NCBI GenBank assembly: GCA_022842935.1
Contig: JALHOP010000008.1
Coordinates: forward strand, 1-64,000
Direction: 5' to 3'
DNA: 64,000 bases
DNA from: Myxococcota bacterium
Lineage (GTDB): Bacteria > Myxococcota > XYA12-FULL-58-9 > JALHOP01
Part shown: positions 567-7,274 of the stretch, one piece after another
How the letters are laid out: every line of letters begins with the position of its first letter
Position numbering within the stretch: position 1 is the first letter of the stretch
Position numbers and translations under genes: made by a program
Notes under the pieces: model-generated
The model's database searches: none
Told to the model about the DNA's origin: nothing
The model's input: only the letters and a program-made list of their open reading frames with translations

Positions 567-600
567 CGAATAGCCGCTTTTCTCCGGAAGCGGCTATTCG
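567..600 (+). terminator. Strong hairpin after the frameshifted gene
   Basis: A perfect 13-bp inverted repeat (567-579 pairs with 588-600, 8-base loop) starts 22 bases after the stop at 544. It has no clear T-tract, so a rho-independent terminator is only likely. It separates the small gene from the operon promoter at 666. Confidence 0.5.
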
Positions 601-665: not shown

Positions 666-694
666 TTGACGTACCGGCCATGCTTTGCTAACTT
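666..694 (+). promoter_or_regulatory. Candidate sigma-70 promoter for the ubiquitin-like island operon
   Basis: TTGACG at 666-671 and TAACTT at 689-694 are separated by 17 bp, about 22 bases before the ATG at 717. An alternative -10 is TATGAT at 694-699, but its spacing to this -35 is too long. A strong Shine-Dalgarno, GGAGGA, follows at 707-712. All genes from 717 to 6854 run in the same direction with small gaps, so this could drive the whole island. Confidence 0.4.
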
Positions 695-716: not shown

Positions 717-1169
717 ATGTCAGACGGAAGAACCCATCGAGCTATCGGCACCCTCGTCGGAGGGGGCTTCGCCCTCGCCAAGGCCCAGCAGCAGCGCCCC
801 GAGCATCTCCTCCTGGAGGTCCTTGGCGGGCTGATCGCCGGCAACCTGGGGGCCCGTCTGCCCGACGTGTTCGATCCGCCGATGCACCCGGGGCACCGGA
901 GCGTCGCGCACGGGATCGCGCCTGTCGCGGCTGTGGGCCGCGCGGCCGTTCGCGGGCTCGATGGTGCTCAAGTCCGGCTTCGCGCTGAAGCCGATCGTCG
1001 TACAGCGCTTCGCGCGTCCGCCACCACGCCCCTGCAGCGTCTCTGGCAGGCGGTCCTCGAGATCCTCTGCCGGCTTGGTGCCGGCGCGCTGGCCGGGCTC
1101 CTCGGCGGTTACGGCTCGCACGTCGCGCTCGATGCGCTCACCCCCGCCGGCCTACCTCTTCTCGCGTGA
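717..1169 (+). CDS. YdjM-like (DUF457) membrane metal-dependent hydrolase
   Basis: The 150-residue product resembles the YdjM/DUF457 family of inner-membrane 'metal-dependent hydrolases'. It has an early histidine (THRAIGT, residues 6-12), the HPGHRSVAHG cluster and a late GYGSHVALDALTPAG motif, matching the family's HR..T/SH and G.lSH..lD..TP.G signatures, with hydrophobic stretches near residues 11-45 and 112-132. It is shorter than typical members. Start choice is supported by GGAGGA six bases upstream. It is the first gene of the island and lies 8 bp before the regulator gene. E. coli YdjM is LexA-controlled, but no LexA box was seen here. Its role in the island is unknown. Confidence 0.65.
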   Translation: MSDGRTHRAIGTLVGGGFALAKAQQQRPEHLLLEVLGGLIAGNLGARLPDVFDPPMHPGHRSVAHGIAPVAAVGRAAVRGLDGAQVRLRAEADRRTALRASATTPLQRLWQAVLEILCRLGAGALAGLLGGYGSHVALDALTPAGLPLLA

Positions 1170-1177
1170 GGCCATCG

Positions 1178-2425
1178 ATGACTGTCACCCAGGAAGAACT
1201 CGGACGCCGAATTCGCGCCGCACGTGAAGCGTGCCGCATGACCCAAGACGACGCCGCGAAGCACATCGGCGTCTCCCGACCGACCTTTGTCCAGATCGAG
1301 GCGGGCAAGCGCTCGGTCTCCAGCCTTGAGCTCGACAAGCTCGCGTACCTGTTCGGCCGCGACATCCGCGAGTTCGTGGCAAACGAGTTCCAGCAGGAAG
1401 ACTCGCTCACCGCACTGTTCCGCGCGCAGGCCTCCGTCGTTGGCGAGCCCGAGGTTCTCGACAAGCTTCGCGAGTGCATGGCGCTCGGGCGCGAGCTGAC
1501 GAACCTCGAGCGGCTCGTCGGCATCGACCGCGATCTGTCGGCGGTCGCCTCGTACCCGTTCCCGGTGCCGAAGGCGCGCTGGGAGGCGGTGCAGCAGGGC
1601 CAACGCCTCGCTGAGGAGGAACGTCGTCGTCTAGGCTTGGGCTTCGCGCCGCTCCCCGACATGACCGAGCTACTCGAGTCGCAGGGCGTCCGCACGGCGA
1701 TGGTCGAGCTGCCGAACGACGTCTCGGGCCTGACGCTCAGCGACCGGAAGGTGGGCCTCTTCGTCGTCGCGAACGACGTGCATCACTACCTGCGTCGCCG
1801 CTTCTCGTTTGCACACGAGTACGCCCACGTCGTCGCCGATCGTGATCGCTCCGGGCTCATCAGCCAGACCTCGGCGCGCGACGATCTCATCGAGGTTCGC
1901 GCCAACGCGTTCGCCGCGAACTTCCTCATGCCGGAGGACGGCGTCCGTCAGTTCGTCAGTGGCCTTGGCAAGGGCAAGCCGAGCCGCGTCTTCGCTGAAG
2001 TGTTCGACGAGGAAGCGGCGCTCAACGTCGAAGGGCGCTCGGAGCCAGGCACCCAGACGATCCAGCTCTACGACGTCGTGCTGCTCGCGCACCATTTCGG
2101 CGTGAGCCGGATCTCCGCGCTGTACCGGCTGCGCAACCTGCGCCTGCTCTCCGAGGCCGAGTTCAACCACCTCAAGGCGCTCGATGACGAGGGCAAGGGT
2201 AAGCCACTCGCGATGGCGCTCGGTCTCTCCGAGCCCGATCACGCGGAGATGCGCAGTGAGTTCAAGCACCGCTTCCTCGGGCTGGCGCTCGAGGCCTACC
2301 GTCGCGACGAGATCTCACGCGGCAAGCTCCGCGAGCTCGTGGCGATGGTCGGCCTTAGCGTCGACGACCTGGACCAACTCCTCGATGACGCCGGTCTCGA
2401 CGGCGAGGACGACCCCGCGCCGTGA
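1178..2425 (+). CDS. XRE-family HTH regulator with ImmA/IrrE metalloprotease domain
   Basis: The N-terminal XRE helix-turn-helix (about residues 5-60, containing MTQDDAAKHIGVSRPTFVQI) is followed by a zinc-peptidase domain with HEYAH at residues 213-217 and a downstream EVRANAFAANFLMP helix carrying the third ligand, typical of ImmA/IrrE. Such proteins bind DNA and cleave a repressor or antitoxin partner in response to stress or phage signals. ATG 1178 is chosen; an in-frame GTG at 1166 would overlap the previous stop. The stop overlaps the PIN gene's GTG start, so the two are translationally coupled, suggesting a toxin-antitoxin-like or sensor unit attached to the ubiquitin-like cassette. 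Confidence 0.85.
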   Translation: MTVTQEELGRRIRAAREACRMTQDDAAKHIGVSRPTFVQIEAGKRSVSSLELDKLAYLFGRDIREFVANEFQQEDSLTALFRAQASVVGEPEVLDKLRECMALGRELTNLERLVGIDRDLSAVASYPFPVPKARWEAVQQGQRLAEEERRRLGLGFAPLPDMTELLESQGVRTAMVELPNDVSGLTLSDRKVGLFVVANDVHHYLRRRFSFAHEYAHVVADRDRSGLISQTSARDDLIEVRANAFAANFLMPEDGVRQFVSGLGKGKPSRVFAEVFDEEAALNVEGRSEPGTQTIQLYDVVLLAHHFGVSRISALYRLRNLRLLSEAEFNHLKALDDEGKGKPLAMALGLSEPDHAEMRSEFKHRFLGLALEAYRRDEISRGKLRELVAMVGLSVDDLDQLLDDAGLDGEDDPAP

Positions 2426-2931
2426 GCACACCGATCCTCCGCATCGTCGTGACCGACGCCAACGTGCTCATCAACCTGATGCACGTGTCGCGACTTGGCC
2501 TGCTGGCCAAGATCCCCAACCACGAGTTCGTGGTGCCGGAGCACGTGCGCGAGGAGATCACGATCGCCGAGCAGCGGACGACGCTCGACGCCGCGGTCAC
2601 CGCGGGCTGGCTGAAGATCGAGGTCATCGATGACATCGGCGCCATCACGGTCTTCACGGAGCTCATCGCTCACATCGGTCGTGGCGAAGCGGCGTGCATC
2701 GCGATCGCCGCGCAGAAGGGCTGGCTCATCGCCTCCGACGAGAAGAAGCGGTTCCTCCGCGAGGCCACAGCGCGCGTTGGTGTCGGCCACGTCCTCACCA
2801 CCGTCGACGTGTTCGTCCTCGCGATCAAGGCGGGGCTCCTCACCATCGAGGAAGCCGACGCGGACAAGATCACGCTCGAAGGTAGGCGGTTCAAGGTGTC
2901 GTTCGGCTCGTATCGGGAACTCGTGAAGTAG
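2422..2931 (+). CDS. PIN-domain nuclease-like protein
   Basis: The 169-residue protein has the PIN fold pattern: VVTDANVLINL (D12), a central EAACIAIA helix (E89) and WLIASDEK (D106), giving the usual acidic triad for Mg-dependent RNase activity. GTG start; it overlaps the end of the HTH/ImmA-IrrE gene by 4 bp and is followed 28 bp later by the ubiquitin-like gene. PIN proteins are usually VapC-type RNase toxins. The upstream protein could be the antitoxin or regulator, though it is far larger than a VapB. Whether this arm acts as the effector of the ubiquitin-like system is inference. Confidence 0.8.
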   Translation: MSTPILRIVVTDANVLINLMHVSRLGLLAKIPNHEFVVPEHVREEITIAEQRTTLDAAVTAGWLKIEVIDDIGAITVFTELIAHIGRGEAACIAIAAQKGWLIASDEKKRFLREATARVGVGHVLTTVDVFVLAIKAGLLTIEEADADKITLEGRRFKVSFGSYRELVK

Positions 2932-2959
2932 CCCCACCCGGGGAGAAGGAGCAGTCCAC

Positions 2960-3280
2960 ATGTCCACGGAAATGGAAGCTGAAGTCGACGAGATCGAGAT
3001 CGAGGTTCACACCCAGAAGGTCAGCGGGAAGGAGAAGCCGCCCAAGGCGAAGAAGTACATCATCCGCGTCGACAAGACGAAGTTCACCGTCGAGGTCTCG
3101 TCGATGACTGGGCGCGAGATCCTCTCCCTCGCCGGCAAGACGCCGGTCGAGCAGTACAAGCTGACCCAGAAGATGCATGGCGGCGCGGCGAAGACGATCA
3201 ACCTCGACGACCCGGTCGACTTCACGGAGCCCGGCGTTGAGCGCTTCATGACGCTGAAGCGTGACCAGACCGAGGGCTGA
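2960..3280 (+). CDS. Ubiquitin-like protein, multiubiquitin (Bub-type) family
   Basis: The 106-residue product matches the bacterial multiubiquitin family: a single beta-grasp unit reading KYIIRVDKTKFTVEVSSMTG, then GREILSLAGKTPVEQYKL, ending in RFMTLKRDQTEG with a C-terminal glycine. Only one beta-grasp copy is present, preceded by about 28 acidic/lysine-rich residues. It would be adenylated by the E1 encoded two genes downstream. Shine-Dalgarno-like GGAGAAGGAG precedes ATG 2960. It sits directly before the E2-like gene with one base between them, so co-expression is expected. The target of conjugation is unknown. Confidence 0.9.
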   Translation: MSTEMEAEVDEIEIEVHTQKVSGKEKPPKAKKYIIRVDKTKFTVEVSSMTGREILSLAGKTPVEQYKLTQKMHGGAAKTINLDDPVDFTEPGVERFMTLKRDQTEG

Positions 3281-3281
3281 C

Positions 3282-3683
3282 ATGCGCCGGCAGTTCGAGC
3301 TCCCTTCGTTCGACACGCAGTACCTGGAGACGACCGGCCTCGAGTGGGAGACCATCGTCGAGGGCGCGGGGCGGTGGCTGCTTCTCCACGGTCGTCCCCT
3401 ACCCAACGGGTACAACGTCGAGCGCGCCATCGTCGCGCTGCAGATCCCGCCCGGGTATCCCGACGCGCAGATCGACATGGTGTACTTCTTCCCCGCACTC
3501 GCGAGGAAGGACAATCAGGCCATCGGTGCGACCCAAAGCGCGCAGGCTCTCGACGGAAAGTCGTTCCAGCGTTGGTCTCGACACCGCACCGCTGCTGCCC
3601 CGTGGCGGCCGGGCGAGGACGACATCTCGAGCCATCTCGTGCTCGTCGACGACTGGCTCGAACGCGAGTTCAAGATCCGATGA
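3282..3683 (+). CDS. E2-like protein, prokaryotic E2 family E, lacking cysteine
   Basis: The 133-residue protein has the Prok-E2_E pattern: LPNGYNVERAIVALQIPPGYPDAQIDMVYF, then FQRWSRHR, WRPGEDDISSHL and VDDWLEREF. The fold is the UBC/E2 core expected to carry the ubiquitin-like protein from E1. Reading the whole sequence I find no cysteine, so a canonical thioester cannot form on it. Serines and histidine around residues 82-88 (SFQRWSRH) sit near where an E2 active site would lie. It begins one base after the ubiquitin-like stop and overlaps the JAB-E1 gene by 4 bp (ATGA). Confidence 0.85.
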   Translation: MRRQFELPSFDTQYLETTGLEWETIVEGAGRWLLLHGRPLPNGYNVERAIVALQIPPGYPDAQIDMVYFFPALARKDNQAIGATQSAQALDGKSFQRWSRHRTAAAPWRPGEDDISSHLVLVDDWLEREFKIR

Positions 3684-5083
3684 AGAACCGTCCAGCTCAT
3701 CTCCGGCTCGCGGGCGTTCACGCCGAGGAACTTCATCGTCACCTGTTTCCCGGTGACGGCAAGGAAGCCGTGGCGTTCGCGCTCTGCGGTCGTCACCACG
3801 CCACCGAACACGACGTCCTACTCGTGCAGGAAGTGCTTCCGGTCCCCTACGCAGACTGTCCGGTCCGCAAGGCCGACCAAATCACCTGGCGCACGGAGGC
3901 CATCGAACCGCTCCTGCTTCGGGCGTCTCGGGCCACGCCGAAGCTTGGGGTCGTGAAGTTCCACAGCCACCCCACGGGTTACGAAGACTTCTCGCGCACC
4001 GACGACATCTCGGACCGGGACCTCTTCCCCTCGATCTACGGGTGGGTCGACGACGACGGACCTCACGCCAGCGTCGTCATGCTCCCAGACCGCCGCATGT
4101 TCGGTCGCAGCATCGACAGTGAGAATCGCTTCCATCGGCTTCAGCAGATCCTCGTCGCTGACCACGACATCGGCCTCTTTGGGACGATCGCTTCGGCAGC
4201 GCTGCCGGCGCACGCGGAGCGCCACGCGCAGGTCTTTGGCGACAGTACGACCAGCCGCCTTCGGCAGCTCGCCATCGGGGTGGTCGGATGCTCTGGCACG
4301 GGCAGCTTCGTCATCGAGATGCTGGCCCGCCTCGGCGTGAGAAAGCTGGTGTTGGTTGACCCTGACCGAGTCGAGTACAGGAACCTCAACCGGATCGTCG
4401 GCACGACCGCCGCTGACGCGGCGACGAGCAGGAGCAAGGTCGAGGCAATTGGCGAGCACGTGGCCCGCCTCGGCCTCGACACCCGCGTCGAGATCGTGCC
4501 GCGCGAGTTGGCTTCCGTAGAGGCCGTTCGCGCGCTGGCAGGTTGCGACGTGCTCTTCGGCTGCATGGACAGCCACGACGGTCGCCGCACCCTGAACCGG
4601 CTCGCGTCCTTCTACGTGCTGCCGTACTTCGACTGCGGCGTCGGCTTGGCTGCCGACGGCACCGGCAACATCGACGACGTCACAGCGGCGGCGCACTACG
4701 TTCAGCCAGGGCGATCGACTTTGCTCGCGCGCAGAGTGATCTCGCAGAAGCGGGCCGACGCCGAAGCGATGGCCCGCCGCGATCCTGAGCAGTACCGAGC
4801 GCTTCACGCGGAGAAATACATCGAGGGAGCAGAGATCGACAGCCCCGCCGTTATCAGCGTCAACGCGCTCGCAGCCTCTCTGGTAGTGAACGAGTTCCTT
4901 GCGCGACTACACCCGTTCCGCCAGACGGCAAACGCGGACTACGCGTCCGTCCGTCTGAAGTACGACGCGATGCTGCTCGACGTGGAGCAAGAGACGGATG
5001 CCACCCCCCTTCGCAGGGCGCTCGGGAGGGGCGACGTCCAACCGCTGCTCGACTTGCCCGAGCTGTCGTCGGTGGGAGCGTAG
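3680..5083 (+). CDS. JAB/JAMM isopeptidase fused to ThiF-type E1 activating enzyme
   Basis: The 467-residue fusion begins with a JAMM metalloprotease: E29, then HSHPTG (H95, H97), S105 and D108 in exact HxHx7Sx2D spacing, so the zinc site looks intact. From about residue 195 it is a ThiF/E1 adenylation domain: VVGCSGTGSFV nucleotide loop, LVLVDPDRVEYRNLNR, and CMDSHDGR (C295, D297). The HYVQPGRSTLL segment, where ThiF/MoeB-type enzymes usually carry the acceptor cysteine, has S346/T347 instead and no cysteine follows. Predicted roles are activation of the ubiquitin-like protein and its removal or processing. It overlaps the E2 gene by 4 bp. Confidence 0.9.
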   Translation: MKNRPAHLRLAGVHAEELHRHLFPGDGKEAVAFALCGRHHATEHDVLLVQEVLPVPYADCPVRKADQITWRTEAIEPLLLRASRATPKLGVVKFHSHPTGYEDFSRTDDISDRDLFPSIYGWVDDDGPHASVVMLPDRRMFGRSIDSENRFHRLQQILVADHDIGLFGTIASAALPAHAERHAQVFGDSTTSRLRQLAIGVVGCSGTGSFVIEMLARLGVRKLVLVDPDRVEYRNLNRIVGTTAADAATSRSKVEAIGEHVARLGLDTRVEIVPRELASVEAVRALAGCDVLFGCMDSHDGRRTLNRLASFYVLPYFDCGVGLAADGTGNIDDVTAAAHYVQPGRSTLLARRVISQKRADAEAMARRDPEQYRALHAEKYIEGAEIDSPAVISVNALAASLVVNEFLARLHPFRQTANADYASVRLKYDAMLLDVEQETDATPLRRALGRGDVQPLLDLPELSSVGA

Positions 5084-5087
5084 AGAA

Positions 5088-5537
5088 ATGCGTTGGCTGC
5101 GTCGGCTCTGGGCTCGGTTCTCCGAGTGGATTCGCTCCCTGCGCTTGCCGGGAGGAGTGAGCAACGACGACTCGGCTTCCGCGCCCGCGCCGCAGCTACC
5201 ACCGGCGGCACCACCACCCCAGTATCGCGTCGTCCACCTTACCGACGATCCCGACGATCTGCTGCCGGAGACTCTCTACGCCATCGGGGAGAACGGCCAC
5301 CTCTGGCACGTCTCGCTCGTGTGCCCCTGCGGCTGCGGCGCAACGATCGCGCTCAACGTGCTCCCCGACGACTCGCCGCGCTGGCGGCTGTACGAGAGCG
5401 CCGACGGTCCGACGCTGTCTCCGTCGGTCTGGAGAACTACGGGCTGCCGGAGTCACTTCATCCTTCGAAGGGGCCACGTCATTTGGTGCCATGGTCGACG
5501 ACCGGACGACGTGAGCGAGACCGAGTACAGCGCATAG
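5088..5537 (+). CDS. DUF6527 (BubE-type) protein of the ubiquitin-like cassette
   Basis: The 149-residue product has the DUF6527 signature: LVCPCGCGATIALNV, WRLYESADGPTLSPSVW, then CRSHFILRRGHVIWC. This family accompanies multiubiquitin/E2/E1 cassettes; recent work on Bub operons, as I recall, treats it as a peptidase acting on the ubiquitin-like protein. The N terminus (MRWLRRLWARFSEWIRSLR) is a basic amphipathic helix followed by a proline/alanine linker to about residue 47, which could bind membrane or a partner. It starts 4 bases after the E1 stop, completing the cassette. The CPCGCG cluster and conserved Ser/His are the obvious candidates for function. Confidence 0.85.
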   Translation: MRWLRRLWARFSEWIRSLRLPGGVSNDDSASAPAPQLPPAAPPPQYRVVHLTDDPDDLLPETLYAIGENGHLWHVSLVCPCGCGATIALNVLPDDSPRWRLYESADGPTLSPSVWRTTGCRSHFILRRGHVIWCHGRRPDDVSETEYSA

Positions 5538-5588: not shown

Positions 5589-6854
5589 ATGGCCATCACC
5601 CGCGAGACCCTCTACGAGGAGGTCTGGGCCGAGCCGATGACGAAGGTCGCGGCTCGGTACGCCGTCTCGTCGAGCTTCCTCGCGCGGGTCTGCGAGCGGC
5701 TGAACGTCCCGCGGCCGTCTCGCGGCTACTGGGCGCAACTCGATGTCGGGAAGGCCAGCGCGAAGCCCGCGCTGCCGGAGGCGCGCCCGGGCGACGAGCT
5801 GGAGTGGTCGCGCGAGGGTGAGCCGCGCCGCGTCCCCCGCGCACTGCCGCAGCCGCCTTCCGAGAACGAGCCCCCGCCGCGGCGCCGTCGACGCGAGCGG
5901 CCGTCGCGACACGAACTGATCGTCGGCGCACGCGAGCACTTCGAGGGCGCAAAGGAGTCCGACAGCGGGTACCTGCGGCCGCTCAAGAAGCGGCTCGTCG
6001 ACGCGTTCGTGACGAAGGCGACGCTGGACCACGCGCTGGACGTAGCAAACGCACTGTTCTTGGCGCTCGAGGATCGCGGGCACCGGGTCACCTTTGCGCC
6101 CTTGGACCAGCACCTGCGCCGGCCCGAGGTCGACGAGCGCACCGAGGGAGGAGGCGAGCGGTACAGCTACGGACGCTGGGGCCCGGATCGCCCGACGGTC
6201 GTCTACGTCGGCTCCGTCGCAATCGGCCTGACGATGTTCGAGCTCAGCGAAGAGGTGGAGGTCCGATACGTGGACGGCAAGTACGTTCGCGTCGCCGACG
6301 TCCCGCAGCCAGCCACAAGGCGGCGGCGCTGGGCACCGCCAGAGCACGTCTGGACGCACAAGCGTGACATGCCGAGCGGGCGCCTGTGCCTCCGGGCTTC
6401 ATCCCCGTACGCGCGCGCCAAGTGGGAGAAGCAGTGGCGAGAAGGCAGGGGCTCGGGGGGCTCGGACCTTTCGTCGAAGGTGCCTCAGATCGTCCGCGAG
6501 CTGGAGACCGAGGCTGCAACCATCGCCGCGCTCGTTGCCGAGGGAGAACGGCAAGCCGAGATCGAGCGGCAGAAGTGGGAGGCGCAGCAGGCAAAGTGGC
6601 GTGCAGAGGAAGCGGAGCGTCGGCGCATCCAGAACACGAAGGAGAGCAGGGAGGAGCTCTTCGCCATCATCGAGGCGTGGGGCGTGGCGAAGCAGATCGA
6701 GGGCTTCTTCGAGGACGCACAGCGCCGCGCGGCCGAGCTCGACGAGGACGCAAGGGACGCGATCCGGGACCGGCTCAAGCTAGCACGCGCGCTCCTGGGC
6801 GATGTCGACGCTCTCCGGCGGTTCCGCGCCTGGCGGTCACCCGAAGAGCGGTAG
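5589..6854 (+). CDS. Hypothetical protein with DNA-binding-like N terminus
   Basis: The first 55 residues (ITRETLYEEVWAEPMTKVAA ... VPRPSRGYWAQLDVGKA) match a widespread, poorly named family seen in genomic islands and defence loci, whose N terminus resembles a helix-turn-helix. A proline/arginine linker (about 60-110) follows, then a mixed domain (about 115-290) and a long charged coiled-coil (about 300-410). There are no catalytic motifs I can name. It starts 51 bp after the DUF6527 stop on the same strand, so it may be the last gene of the operon. A role as regulator or scaffold for the island is a guess. Confidence 0.6.
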   Translation: MAITRETLYEEVWAEPMTKVAARYAVSSSFLARVCERLNVPRPSRGYWAQLDVGKASAKPALPEARPGDELEWSREGEPRRVPRALPQPPSENEPPPRRRRRERPSRHELIVGAREHFEGAKESDSGYLRPLKKRLVDAFVTKATLDHALDVANALFLALEDRGHRVTFAPLDQHLRRPEVDERTEGGGERYSYGRWGPDRPTVVYVGSVAIGLTMFELSEEVEVRYVDGKYVRVADVPQPATRRRRWAPPEHVWTHKRDMPSGRLCLRASSPYARAKWEKQWREGRGSGGSDLSSKVPQIVRELETEAATIAALVAEGERQAEIERQKWEAQQAKWRAEEAERRRIQNTKESREELFAIIEAWGVAKQIEGFFEDAQRRAAELDEDARDAIRDRLKLARALLGDVDALRRFRAWRSPEER

Positions 6855-7274
6855 CGTGCGGGGCGGCGCGACGGCCCCAACGAGCGAGGCGCGCATGGCG
6901 CTCCACGCGCGACGCGCGACAGGACGGTGCGAATCACGGAGAGCGTCCCGAGTCGCCGCCCGCAACCTGCCGGATTCGCAAGCGTTCGCATTTTCGGGAC
7001 CGTGCGAGCGGAGCGAACCCGTCCCGCCGAGAGCACTGCGAACGGGTTGGTGAACGGCTCCCAATGCGGAGCTTCCTTCTAGCGAGAAGAGCCGGTTTCC
7101 GGCTCGCACAGCTCCAGCGCGCTCTCGTCTCGCTCGGTCTTCTGCCTCGTGCTCTCCGGCGTGGCGACCGGCACTTCGCCGCGAACGAGTCCGTGATGGC
7201 CCGCACAAGGCTCGTCACCACGTTGGGGTCGACGATGCGGGTGGCGCCCTCATGCCCCAGGTCTGCCAGCTCCC
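6855..7274 (-). other. Gene-poor boundary with a degenerate coding remnant
   Basis: No intact gene is seen. On the minus strand the stretch 7265 to about 7170 reads as protein-like (LGHEGATRIVDPNVVTSLVR), then needs a frame change to continue as VATPESTRQKTERDESALEL and end in a TAG near 7081. That suggests a decayed C-terminal fragment, possibly of an integrase-like or other mobile gene, but I could not confirm the family. It marks the change from the island to conserved ybbP-ybbA-tesA, so it may be a scar of integration or deletion. Confidence 0.3.

What the first reader, a model, noticed from the sequence alone, without database searches (positions are those of the whole stretch)
2960..5537. 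Complete compact bacterial ubiquitin-like (Bub-type) cassette
Four adjacent genes encode a single-domain ubiquitin-like protein ending in ...DQTEG, an E2-family-E protein, a JAMM isopeptidase fused to an E1, and a DUF6527 protein, with overlaps or gaps of 1-5 bases. The JAMM zinc site is intact (H95, H97, S105, D108). The set therefore looks functional, not a relic. Families are known from comparative genomics and recent Bub work; the physiological target in this lineage is not.
Basis: partly seen in the sequence, partly recalled or inferred. Interest (0 to 1): 0.8.

Follow-up and report, generated by a model that had tools for sequence, protein, structure and literature searches.

The report
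Bacterial ubiquitin-like (Bub) operon, complete
This is an intact copy, in a myxobacterium, of a known bacterial gene set (Bub) that works like the ubiquitin-tagging machinery of animals and plants; the less expected part is that it ends a seven-gene unit that starts with a likely DNA-damage sensor and a likely RNA-cutting toxin.

Summary
Confirmed. The four genes at 2960-5537 are a Multi_ubiq protein, a Prok-E2_E protein, a Prok-JAB/ThiF fusion and a DUF6527 protein. Closest solved relatives: Citrobacter BubCD (E=3e-67) and BubB (E=7e-27). This is a Bub operon (bubA-bubB-bubCD-bubE), a new member of a family of over 500 operons (PMC13373217). It is under purifying selection (dN/dS 0.16-0.25 against a Polyangiaceae MAG); JAMM and adenylation residues are invariant across 25 loci. 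BubB has no cysteine, as is usual in the family, so a normal E2 thioester is excluded. Bub has not been shown to stop phage (PMC13373217). New here: the cassette is the 3' half of a conserved seven-gene unit (717-5537), behind a YdjM-like gene, an HTH-M78 protease whose model best matches CapP among solved folds, and a PIN gene. A conserved promoter (666-694) and a palindrome unique in the genome (568-599) lie in front. The HTH-M78+PIN pair recurs beside other Ubl operons and other defence genes. Likely reading: a fused CapH/CapP-type, DNA-damage-gated controller-toxin pair leading a Bub operon. Membership is near certain; the control model is inference.

The parts
568..599 (.). Perfect 12-bp inverted repeat GAATAGCCGCTT-N8-AAGCGGCTATTC (candidate operator or RNA hairpin)
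   Evidence: Only occurrence in the 6.28-Mb genome. Same element with one change in an arm 5' of the homologous unit in L002 at 6917-6948. RNA fold z-score -4.5.
666..694 (+). Sigma70-like promoter TTGACG-N17-TAACTT
   Evidence: Expected 0.01 times in the window. Aligned with TTGACG-N16-TAACTT in L002; TTGACA-N17-TAACCT in front of ydjM in L073.
717..1169 (+). YdjM-like inner-membrane protein
   Evidence: Pfam YdjM 37 bits. Also precedes the HTH-M78 gene in L002 and L073.
1166..2425 (+). HTH-M78 (XRE + ImmA/IrrE-type metalloprotease) fusion; candidate fused CapH/CapP-like controller / RmrA-like antitoxin
   Evidence: Pfam HTH_3 and Peptidase_M78; PADLOC RmrA 2e-26 and capP 8e-16. H217, E218, H221, E243 invariant in 13 homologues. 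Best PDB fold match CapP 7t5t, E=1.6e-5.
2422..2931 (+). PIN-domain protein, candidate RNase toxin; 4-nt overlap with the HTH-M78 gene
   Evidence: PADLOC PDC-S70 7e-12. Three of 13 homologues match Pfam PIN weakly. D12 and E45 invariant, D106 in at least 90%.
2960..3280 (+). bubA: single-domain ubiquitin-like protein, ends in ...DQTEG
   Evidence: Pfam Multi_ubiq 62 bits; aligns with BilA and, more weakly, Citrobacter BubA
3282..3683 (+). bubB: E2-like protein (Prok-E2_E), cysteine-free, invariant S99 and H101
   Evidence: Pfam 139 bits; Citrobacter BubB E=7e-27; residue conservation
3680..5083 (+). bubCD: N-terminal JAMM isopeptidase fused to ThiF/E1 adenylation domain
   Evidence: Pfam Prok-JAB + ThiF; Citrobacter BubCD E=3e-67; invariant E29, H95, H97, S105, D108, G203, G206, G208, N235, R238, K253, D297, R302
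5088..5537 (+). bubE: DUF6527 protein with C79-x3-C83...C120-x2-H123 site and invariant P112-S113
   Evidence: Pfam 79.6 bits; alignment of 20. RefSeq names a homologue 'ubiquitination-like system serine protease family protein'.

Best explanation
A complete, selected Bub (bacterial ubiquitination-like) operon, probably transcribed as the last four genes of a seven-gene unit. Shown by sequence: BubA is made with its C-terminal glycine already exposed (...TEG-stop), so it needs no trimming before activation. Inferred from homology to the Citrobacter enzymes: the ThiF half of BubCD adenylates the BubA C-terminus and, with BubB, attaches BubA to target proteins. Because BubB has no cysteine and the E1 has no conserved candidate cysteine, transfer does not use an E2 thioester; the invariant Ser99/His101 of BubB are candidate participants. 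The JAMM half (BubC) and BubE act as the proteases that remove BubA. Inferred, less certain: transcription starts at the conserved promoter 666-694 and is held down by the HTH-M78 protein, a fused counterpart of CapH (repressor) and CapP (ssDNA-activated protease). DNA damage, for example during infection, would trigger the M78 domain to cleave or inactivate the repressor/antitoxin, which would both free the PIN RNase and raise expression of the Bub enzymes.
For: Pfam families above cut-offs. Closest solved relatives are Citrobacter BubCD and BubB. Gene order is conserved in loci of Myxococcota, Alphaproteobacteria, Planctomycetota, Verrucomicrobiota, Bacteroidota and others. Catalytic residues invariant 25/25. 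dN/dS 0.09-0.28 for all seven genes. No Cys column in BubB. DNA homology runs continuously from 981-5489 to L002 7307-11786, with the promoter and inverted repeat conserved further upstream. HTH-M78 model: CapP is the best PDB fold, IrrE/PprI next. HTH + M78 pairs recur as divergent neighbours of Bub operons (with CapH/CapP PADLOC matches). The fused HTH-M78 + PIN pair sits beside Ubl operons in L016, L081 and L084. CapW and CapH+CapP control adjacent pathways on DNA damage, and 219 of 544 Bub operons carry one of them (PMC13373217).
Against: No transcription data: a promoter inside the unit, for example for bubA alone, is not excluded. The inverted repeat is not seen before the more distant HTH-M78 homologues, so its role as operator is a guess; it could be an RNA hairpin. 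The HTH-M78+PIN pair also stands alone (L082) or beside QueC-like, methyltransferase/helicase and other genes, so its link to Bub may be loose. The DUF6527 model found no PDB fold, so BubE's protease role rests on a RefSeq name. The key mechanism paper (Ye et al. 2026, doi 10.1038/s41594-025-01696-1) was not available here.
Confidence: 0.68

Rival explanations
1. Ordinary Bub operon that has merely landed next to an unrelated toxin-antitoxin pair (HTH-M78 + PIN, RosmerTA-like), with no functional link; Bub has its own control or is constitutive.
For: The HTH-M78+PIN pair is found alone or beside unrelated genes; PADLOC RmrA matches; RosmerTA pairs a protease antitoxin with varied toxins (PMC10440598).
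Against: Same order and spacing in the Polyangiaceae MAG L002 despite about 30% DNA divergence, with different flanks. Independent neighbours in L016, L081 and L084, divergent from the Ubl operon. Only 28 nt lie between PIN and bubA, filled largely by a ribosome-binding site.
Confidence: 0.25
2. Bub acts as an anti-phage defence system in this host, tagging phage proteins as Bil does.
For: Relatives lie on mobile plasmids and near defence-type genes; Bub is described as a putative immune pathway and grouped with defence in a review (PMC13373217, PMC12687455).
Against: Published statement that Bub has not been demonstrated to protect against phage (PMC13373217). No phage data here. The right-hand flank reads as housekeeping genes (permease/ATPase and esterase ORFs), not a defence island.
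Confidence: 0.35
3. Decayed or inactive remnant.
For: Cysteine-free BubB would look dead if compared with a canonical E2.
Against: Absence of a conserved Cys is family-wide. No frameshift, invariant sites intact, dN/dS well under 1.
Confidence: 0.02

Closest known systems
Bub operon of Citrobacter (BubA, BubB, BubCD; PDB 9ea4, 9ea5, 9ea8, 9eae, 9eav; Ye et al. 2026)
   Same: Same components and order; E2-like protein without conserved Cys; JAMM fused to E1; DUF6527 last in the plasmid homologue L027
   Different: About 34% identity in BubCD to the Citrobacter plasmid homologue L027. BubA is a separate single-domain protein here; in the Citrobacter and Enterobacter plasmid loci L027 and L028 the Ubl and E2 regions lie in one long ORF. 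The leader here is HTH-M78+PIN; L027/L028 have an ATP-binding or hypothetical protein and a DNA-binding (winged-HTH) gene there, which fits CapK/CapS.
Bil (bacterial ISG15-like) operon
   Same: Ubl, E2, JAMM and E1 in an operon; Ubl related
   Different: By general knowledge Bil uses a cysteine E2 and separate DUB and E1 proteins; this locus has a cysteine-free E2 of family E, a fused JAMM-E1 and DUF6527
CapH + CapP controllers
   Same: HTH DNA-binding domain plus M78 metalloprotease next to a defence-type operon; CapP is the closest PDB fold
   Different: Fused into one chain with an extra C-terminal helical region, on the same strand, followed by a PIN gene; the pairs seen beside other Bub operons are two separate genes, divergent
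RosmerTA (RmrA protease antitoxin + RmrT toxin)
   Same: HTH-M78 protein overlapping a toxin-type gene; RmrA profile match
   Different: The second gene is a PIN/PDC-S70 protein; the pair is followed by a Bub operon
VapKSC
   Same: Logic of a DNA-damage sensor, antitoxin and PIN toxin (PMC13373217)
   Different: VapKSC uses a kinase and a STAS protein; here a protease-HTH fusion

Membership tests
Bub operon | Ubiquitin-like protein of the Multi_ubiq family | tested here: met
   PF14452 62 bits, cut-off 24.5
Bub operon | E2-like protein of family E (BubB) | tested here: met
   PF14462 139 bits; Citrobacter BubB E=7e-27
Bub operon | JAMM-E1 fusion (BubCD) with intact metal and ATP sites | tested here: met
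   Prok-JAB + ThiF, Citrobacter BubCD E=3e-67; invariant residues in 25 loci
Bub operon | DUF6527 protein encoded last | tested here: met
   PF20137 79.6 bits; conserved position in relatives
Bub operon | Conserved gene order A-B-CD-E in independent genomes | tested here: met
Bub operon | Conjugates its Ubl to protein targets | not testable with these tools
   Needs biochemistry
Bil | E2 with catalytic cysteine and separate JAMM and E1 proteins | tested here: not met
   BubB has no Cys; JAMM and E1 are one ORF
CapH+CapP-type controller | HTH domain and M78 protease with HExxH...E, CapP fold | tested here: met
CapH+CapP-type controller | Separate CapH repressor and CapP protease | tested here: not met
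   Single 419-aa ORF; not filed as CapH+CapP, only as a likely functional counterpart
CapH+CapP-type controller | ssDNA-triggered cleavage of the HTH part | not testable with these tools
   Needs protease assay with ssDNA
RosmerTA | RmrA-type protease antitoxin profile | tested here: met
   PADLOC RmrA 2e-26
RosmerTA | Toxin neutralised by RmrA | not testable with these tools
   Needs growth assay; the PIN protein matched PDC-S70 only

The most novel reading that the evidence does not exclude
The seven genes form one composite system: a single HTH-M78 protein, a fused CapH-CapP, is at once the repressor of a Bub operon and the antitoxin of a PIN RNase, so that one DNA-damage signal releases a toxin and switches on protein tagging. 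The PIN RNase or its targets may be partners of the BubA tagging pathway.
Probability: 0.3. Interest if true: 0.65.

Novelty: new member of a known kind. Interest (0 to 1): 0.42.

Why it matters
It adds a well-preserved Bub operon from Myxococcota, where full Bub is rare: Prok-E2_E is in 5 of 195 phylum genomes, and together with DUF6527 in only 2 of them, this one included. Its BubA is free-standing and single-domain with no pre-processing step, which makes it a simple form for reconstituting cysteine-free conjugation. The conserved HTH-M78+PIN leader gives a directly testable idea for how Bub is switched on and what it is coupled to. That bears on the open questions of when Bub acts and on what.

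Tried and rejected
Bil membership: rejected (no Cys in E2, JAMM fused to E1). Relic: rejected. Phage-borne element: tblastn against phages gave only partial E1-domain hits of 28-31% coverage, and the viral-contig scan found none. No tRNA gene in the window. DUF6527 structure: AF2 from 9 sequences, pLDDT 76.7, no PDB fold match below E=1. An operator shared by distant HTH-M78 homologues was not found. An antitoxin-like C-terminal domain in HTH-M78 (UPF0175, 5 of 13 homologues, E down to 7e-5) is a hint only: 18.6 bits in the window protein against a cut-off of 27.9. NCBIfam and PADLOC gave no specific Bub model. Papers by Ye et al. 2026 and Gong et al. 2025 could not be read (for the first; the second was not found); details of the Bub mechanism beyond names, deposited structures and citing papers are not claimed.

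Full report
What was checked. The genes abut: 1-nt gap, 4-nt ATGA overlap, 4-nt gap. Each family model tested on the own genome (Multi_ubiq, Prok-E2_E, DUF6527) is found once, at this place.

Identity. By sequence the closest solved proteins are Citrobacter BubCD (E=3e-67 over residues 17-463) and Citrobacter BubB (E=7e-27). The ubiquitin-like protein aligns with BilA, other multi-ubiquitin proteins and, more weakly, Citrobacter BubA. The operon is therefore bubA-bubB-bubCD-bubE. A published survey counts 544 Bub operons (PMC13373217), so this is a new member, not a new kind.

Integrity and selection. In an alignment of 25 loci the JAMM residues E29, H95, H97, S105 and D108, the adenylation residues (G203, G206, G208, N235, R238, K253, D297, R302) and the BubB residues S99, H101, W108 and P71 are invariant. 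In an alignment of 20 BubE proteins C79, C83, C120, H123 and S113 are invariant. Against the Polyangiaceae MAG L002, dN/dS is 0.25 (BubA), 0.19 (BubB), 0.16 (BubCD) and 0.25 (BubE); synonymous sites are near saturation (dS 0.8-1.7), so the ratios are approximate.

Chemistry. BubB of the window has no cysteine, and no BubB column holds Cys in 6 or more of 25 sequences. The only invariant Cys of BubCD is C295, two residues before the invariant D297 of the adenylation domain. A sister clade (L012-L015, L031, L032) carries Cys at the position of T347, within PG..C..C motifs, where the main clade mostly has Ser or Thr; I read this as loss of the E1-type zinc CxxC in the main clade. A classical E1-E2 thioester relay is thus not supported. 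That Ser99/His101 take part in transfer is inference.

BubA. In the window, L002, L011, L016, L018, L019 and L022 BubA is a separate ORF; in L003, L017, L020, L021 and L023-L031 the Ubl and E2 regions lie in one ORF with junctions such as ..DQTEG|ELRKEF. The free-standing form ends at the glycine, so the JAMM half is not needed to expose it here and would serve removal only (inference).

The unit is larger than the cassette. Upstream lie a YdjM-like gene (717-1169), an HTH-M78 gene (1166-2425) and a PIN gene (2422-2931), then bubA 28 nt on. L002 has the same seven genes in order, and DNA homology runs unbroken from 981 to 5489. The flanks differ: a transposase ORF precedes the unit in L002, and downstream genes are unlike. 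In front of the unit a sigma70-like promoter TTGACG-N17-TAACTT (666-694; expected 0.01 times per window) is conserved in L002 and in related form in L073. A perfect 12-bp inverted repeat (568-599) occurs once in the 6.28-Mb genome and again, with one change, at the same place in L002.

The leader. The HTH-M78 protein matches Pfam HTH_3 and Peptidase_M78, with HExxH and E243 invariant in 13 homologues. Its AF2 model (pLDDT 80.6) has CapP as best PDB fold (7t5t, E=1.6e-5), then, after two HTH regulators, IrrE/PprI, including PprI bound to ssDNA. PADLOC gives RmrA and capP. The PIN gene matches a PADLOC phage-defence candidate (PDC-S70) and has conserved acidic residues. The pair was found at 13 loci besides the window. 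It lies next to Ubl operons in L002, L016, L081 and L084 and on the same short contig in L015; beside QueC-like genes in L083 and L085, with the same gene arrangement annotated in L087-L089; beside a DNA methyltransferase/helicase pair in L080; and alone in L082. In a search made from the HTH-M78 side, 2 of the 10 annotated plasmid regions read (L080-L085, L087-L090) had an adjacent Ubl operon, while only 120 of 72,556 plasmid records hold a BubCD relative at all; the sample is small and not random. Separate HTH and M78 genes, the CapH+CapP arrangement, stand divergently before Bub in L020, L022, L023, L030, L031 and L032. CapP is activated by ssDNA and cleaves CapH (PMC13373217).

Mechanism proposed. 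Shown: gene content, intact sites, selection, conserved promoter and leader. Inferred from homologues: adenylation and conjugation of BubA by BubCD and BubB, removal by JAMM and BubE; RefSeq already names a BubE homologue 'ubiquitination-like system serine protease family protein'. Inferred with moderate confidence: DNA-damage control by the HTH-M78 protein and coupling to the PIN toxin, by analogy with CapH+CapP and VapKSC (PMC13373217) and RosmerTA (PMC10440598).

Phage defence. Not established for Bub operons (PMC13373217), although a review groups Bub with defence (PMC12687455). The nearest flank on the right reads as housekeeping genes by inspection of the ORFs.

Spread. BubCD relatives are on 120 plasmid records, 58 of them predicted conjugative. 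In Myxococcota Prok-E2_E is in 5 of 195 genomes. A BubCD tree places the window with L002 (100/100), then weakly with a planctomycete plasmid, not with the other myxobacterial copies L012-L015, which fits horizontal movement.

Verdict. The finding is real and correctly interpreted; it is a new member of a known family. The part worth following is the conserved controller-toxin leader.

Noticed in passing
L015:164-8350 (G056 contig C17): An 8.7-kb myxobacterial contig carries CapK/CapS-like genes, an extra GHKL-type gene, a diverged Bub-like operon, a QueC-like gene and an HTH-M78+PIN pair in a row.
   Followed up: partly
L083, L085, L087, L088, L089 (rhizobial plasmids): A recurrent set: hypothetical gene, 7-cyano-7-deazaguanine synthase-like (QueC) gene, HTH-M78 gene, PIN-size gene, beside defence-type genes. 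Looks like an uncharacterised defence module.
   Followed up: partly
L012-L015, L031, L032: Sister clade of BubCD with Cys at the position of window T347 and retained CxxC motifs; may differ in chemistry or zinc binding from the main Bub clade.
   Followed up: partly
L081:3936-5367 and L092-L095: Ubl operons without Prok-E2_E. L081 is Multi_ubiq plus a DUF6791-ThiF protein with a DUF6527 gene nearby; the L092-L095 genomes (G037, G130, G124, G048) hold Multi_ubiq and DUF6527 close together.
   Followed up: partly
window 5589-6854: 421-aa ORF just downstream with only a weak RWP-RK-like N-terminus (E=0.03) and no relative in the other Bub loci examined.
   Followed up: no
E. coli genomes: Only 3 of 5,426 complete E. 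coli genomes hold a Bub operon close to the Enterobacter type, all on chromosomes.
   Followed up: no
L026 (Acinetobacter johnsonii plasmid pXBB1-8): Bub-type operon lies directly beside a Tn7-like tnsE gene and ISAba1 copies.
   Followed up: no
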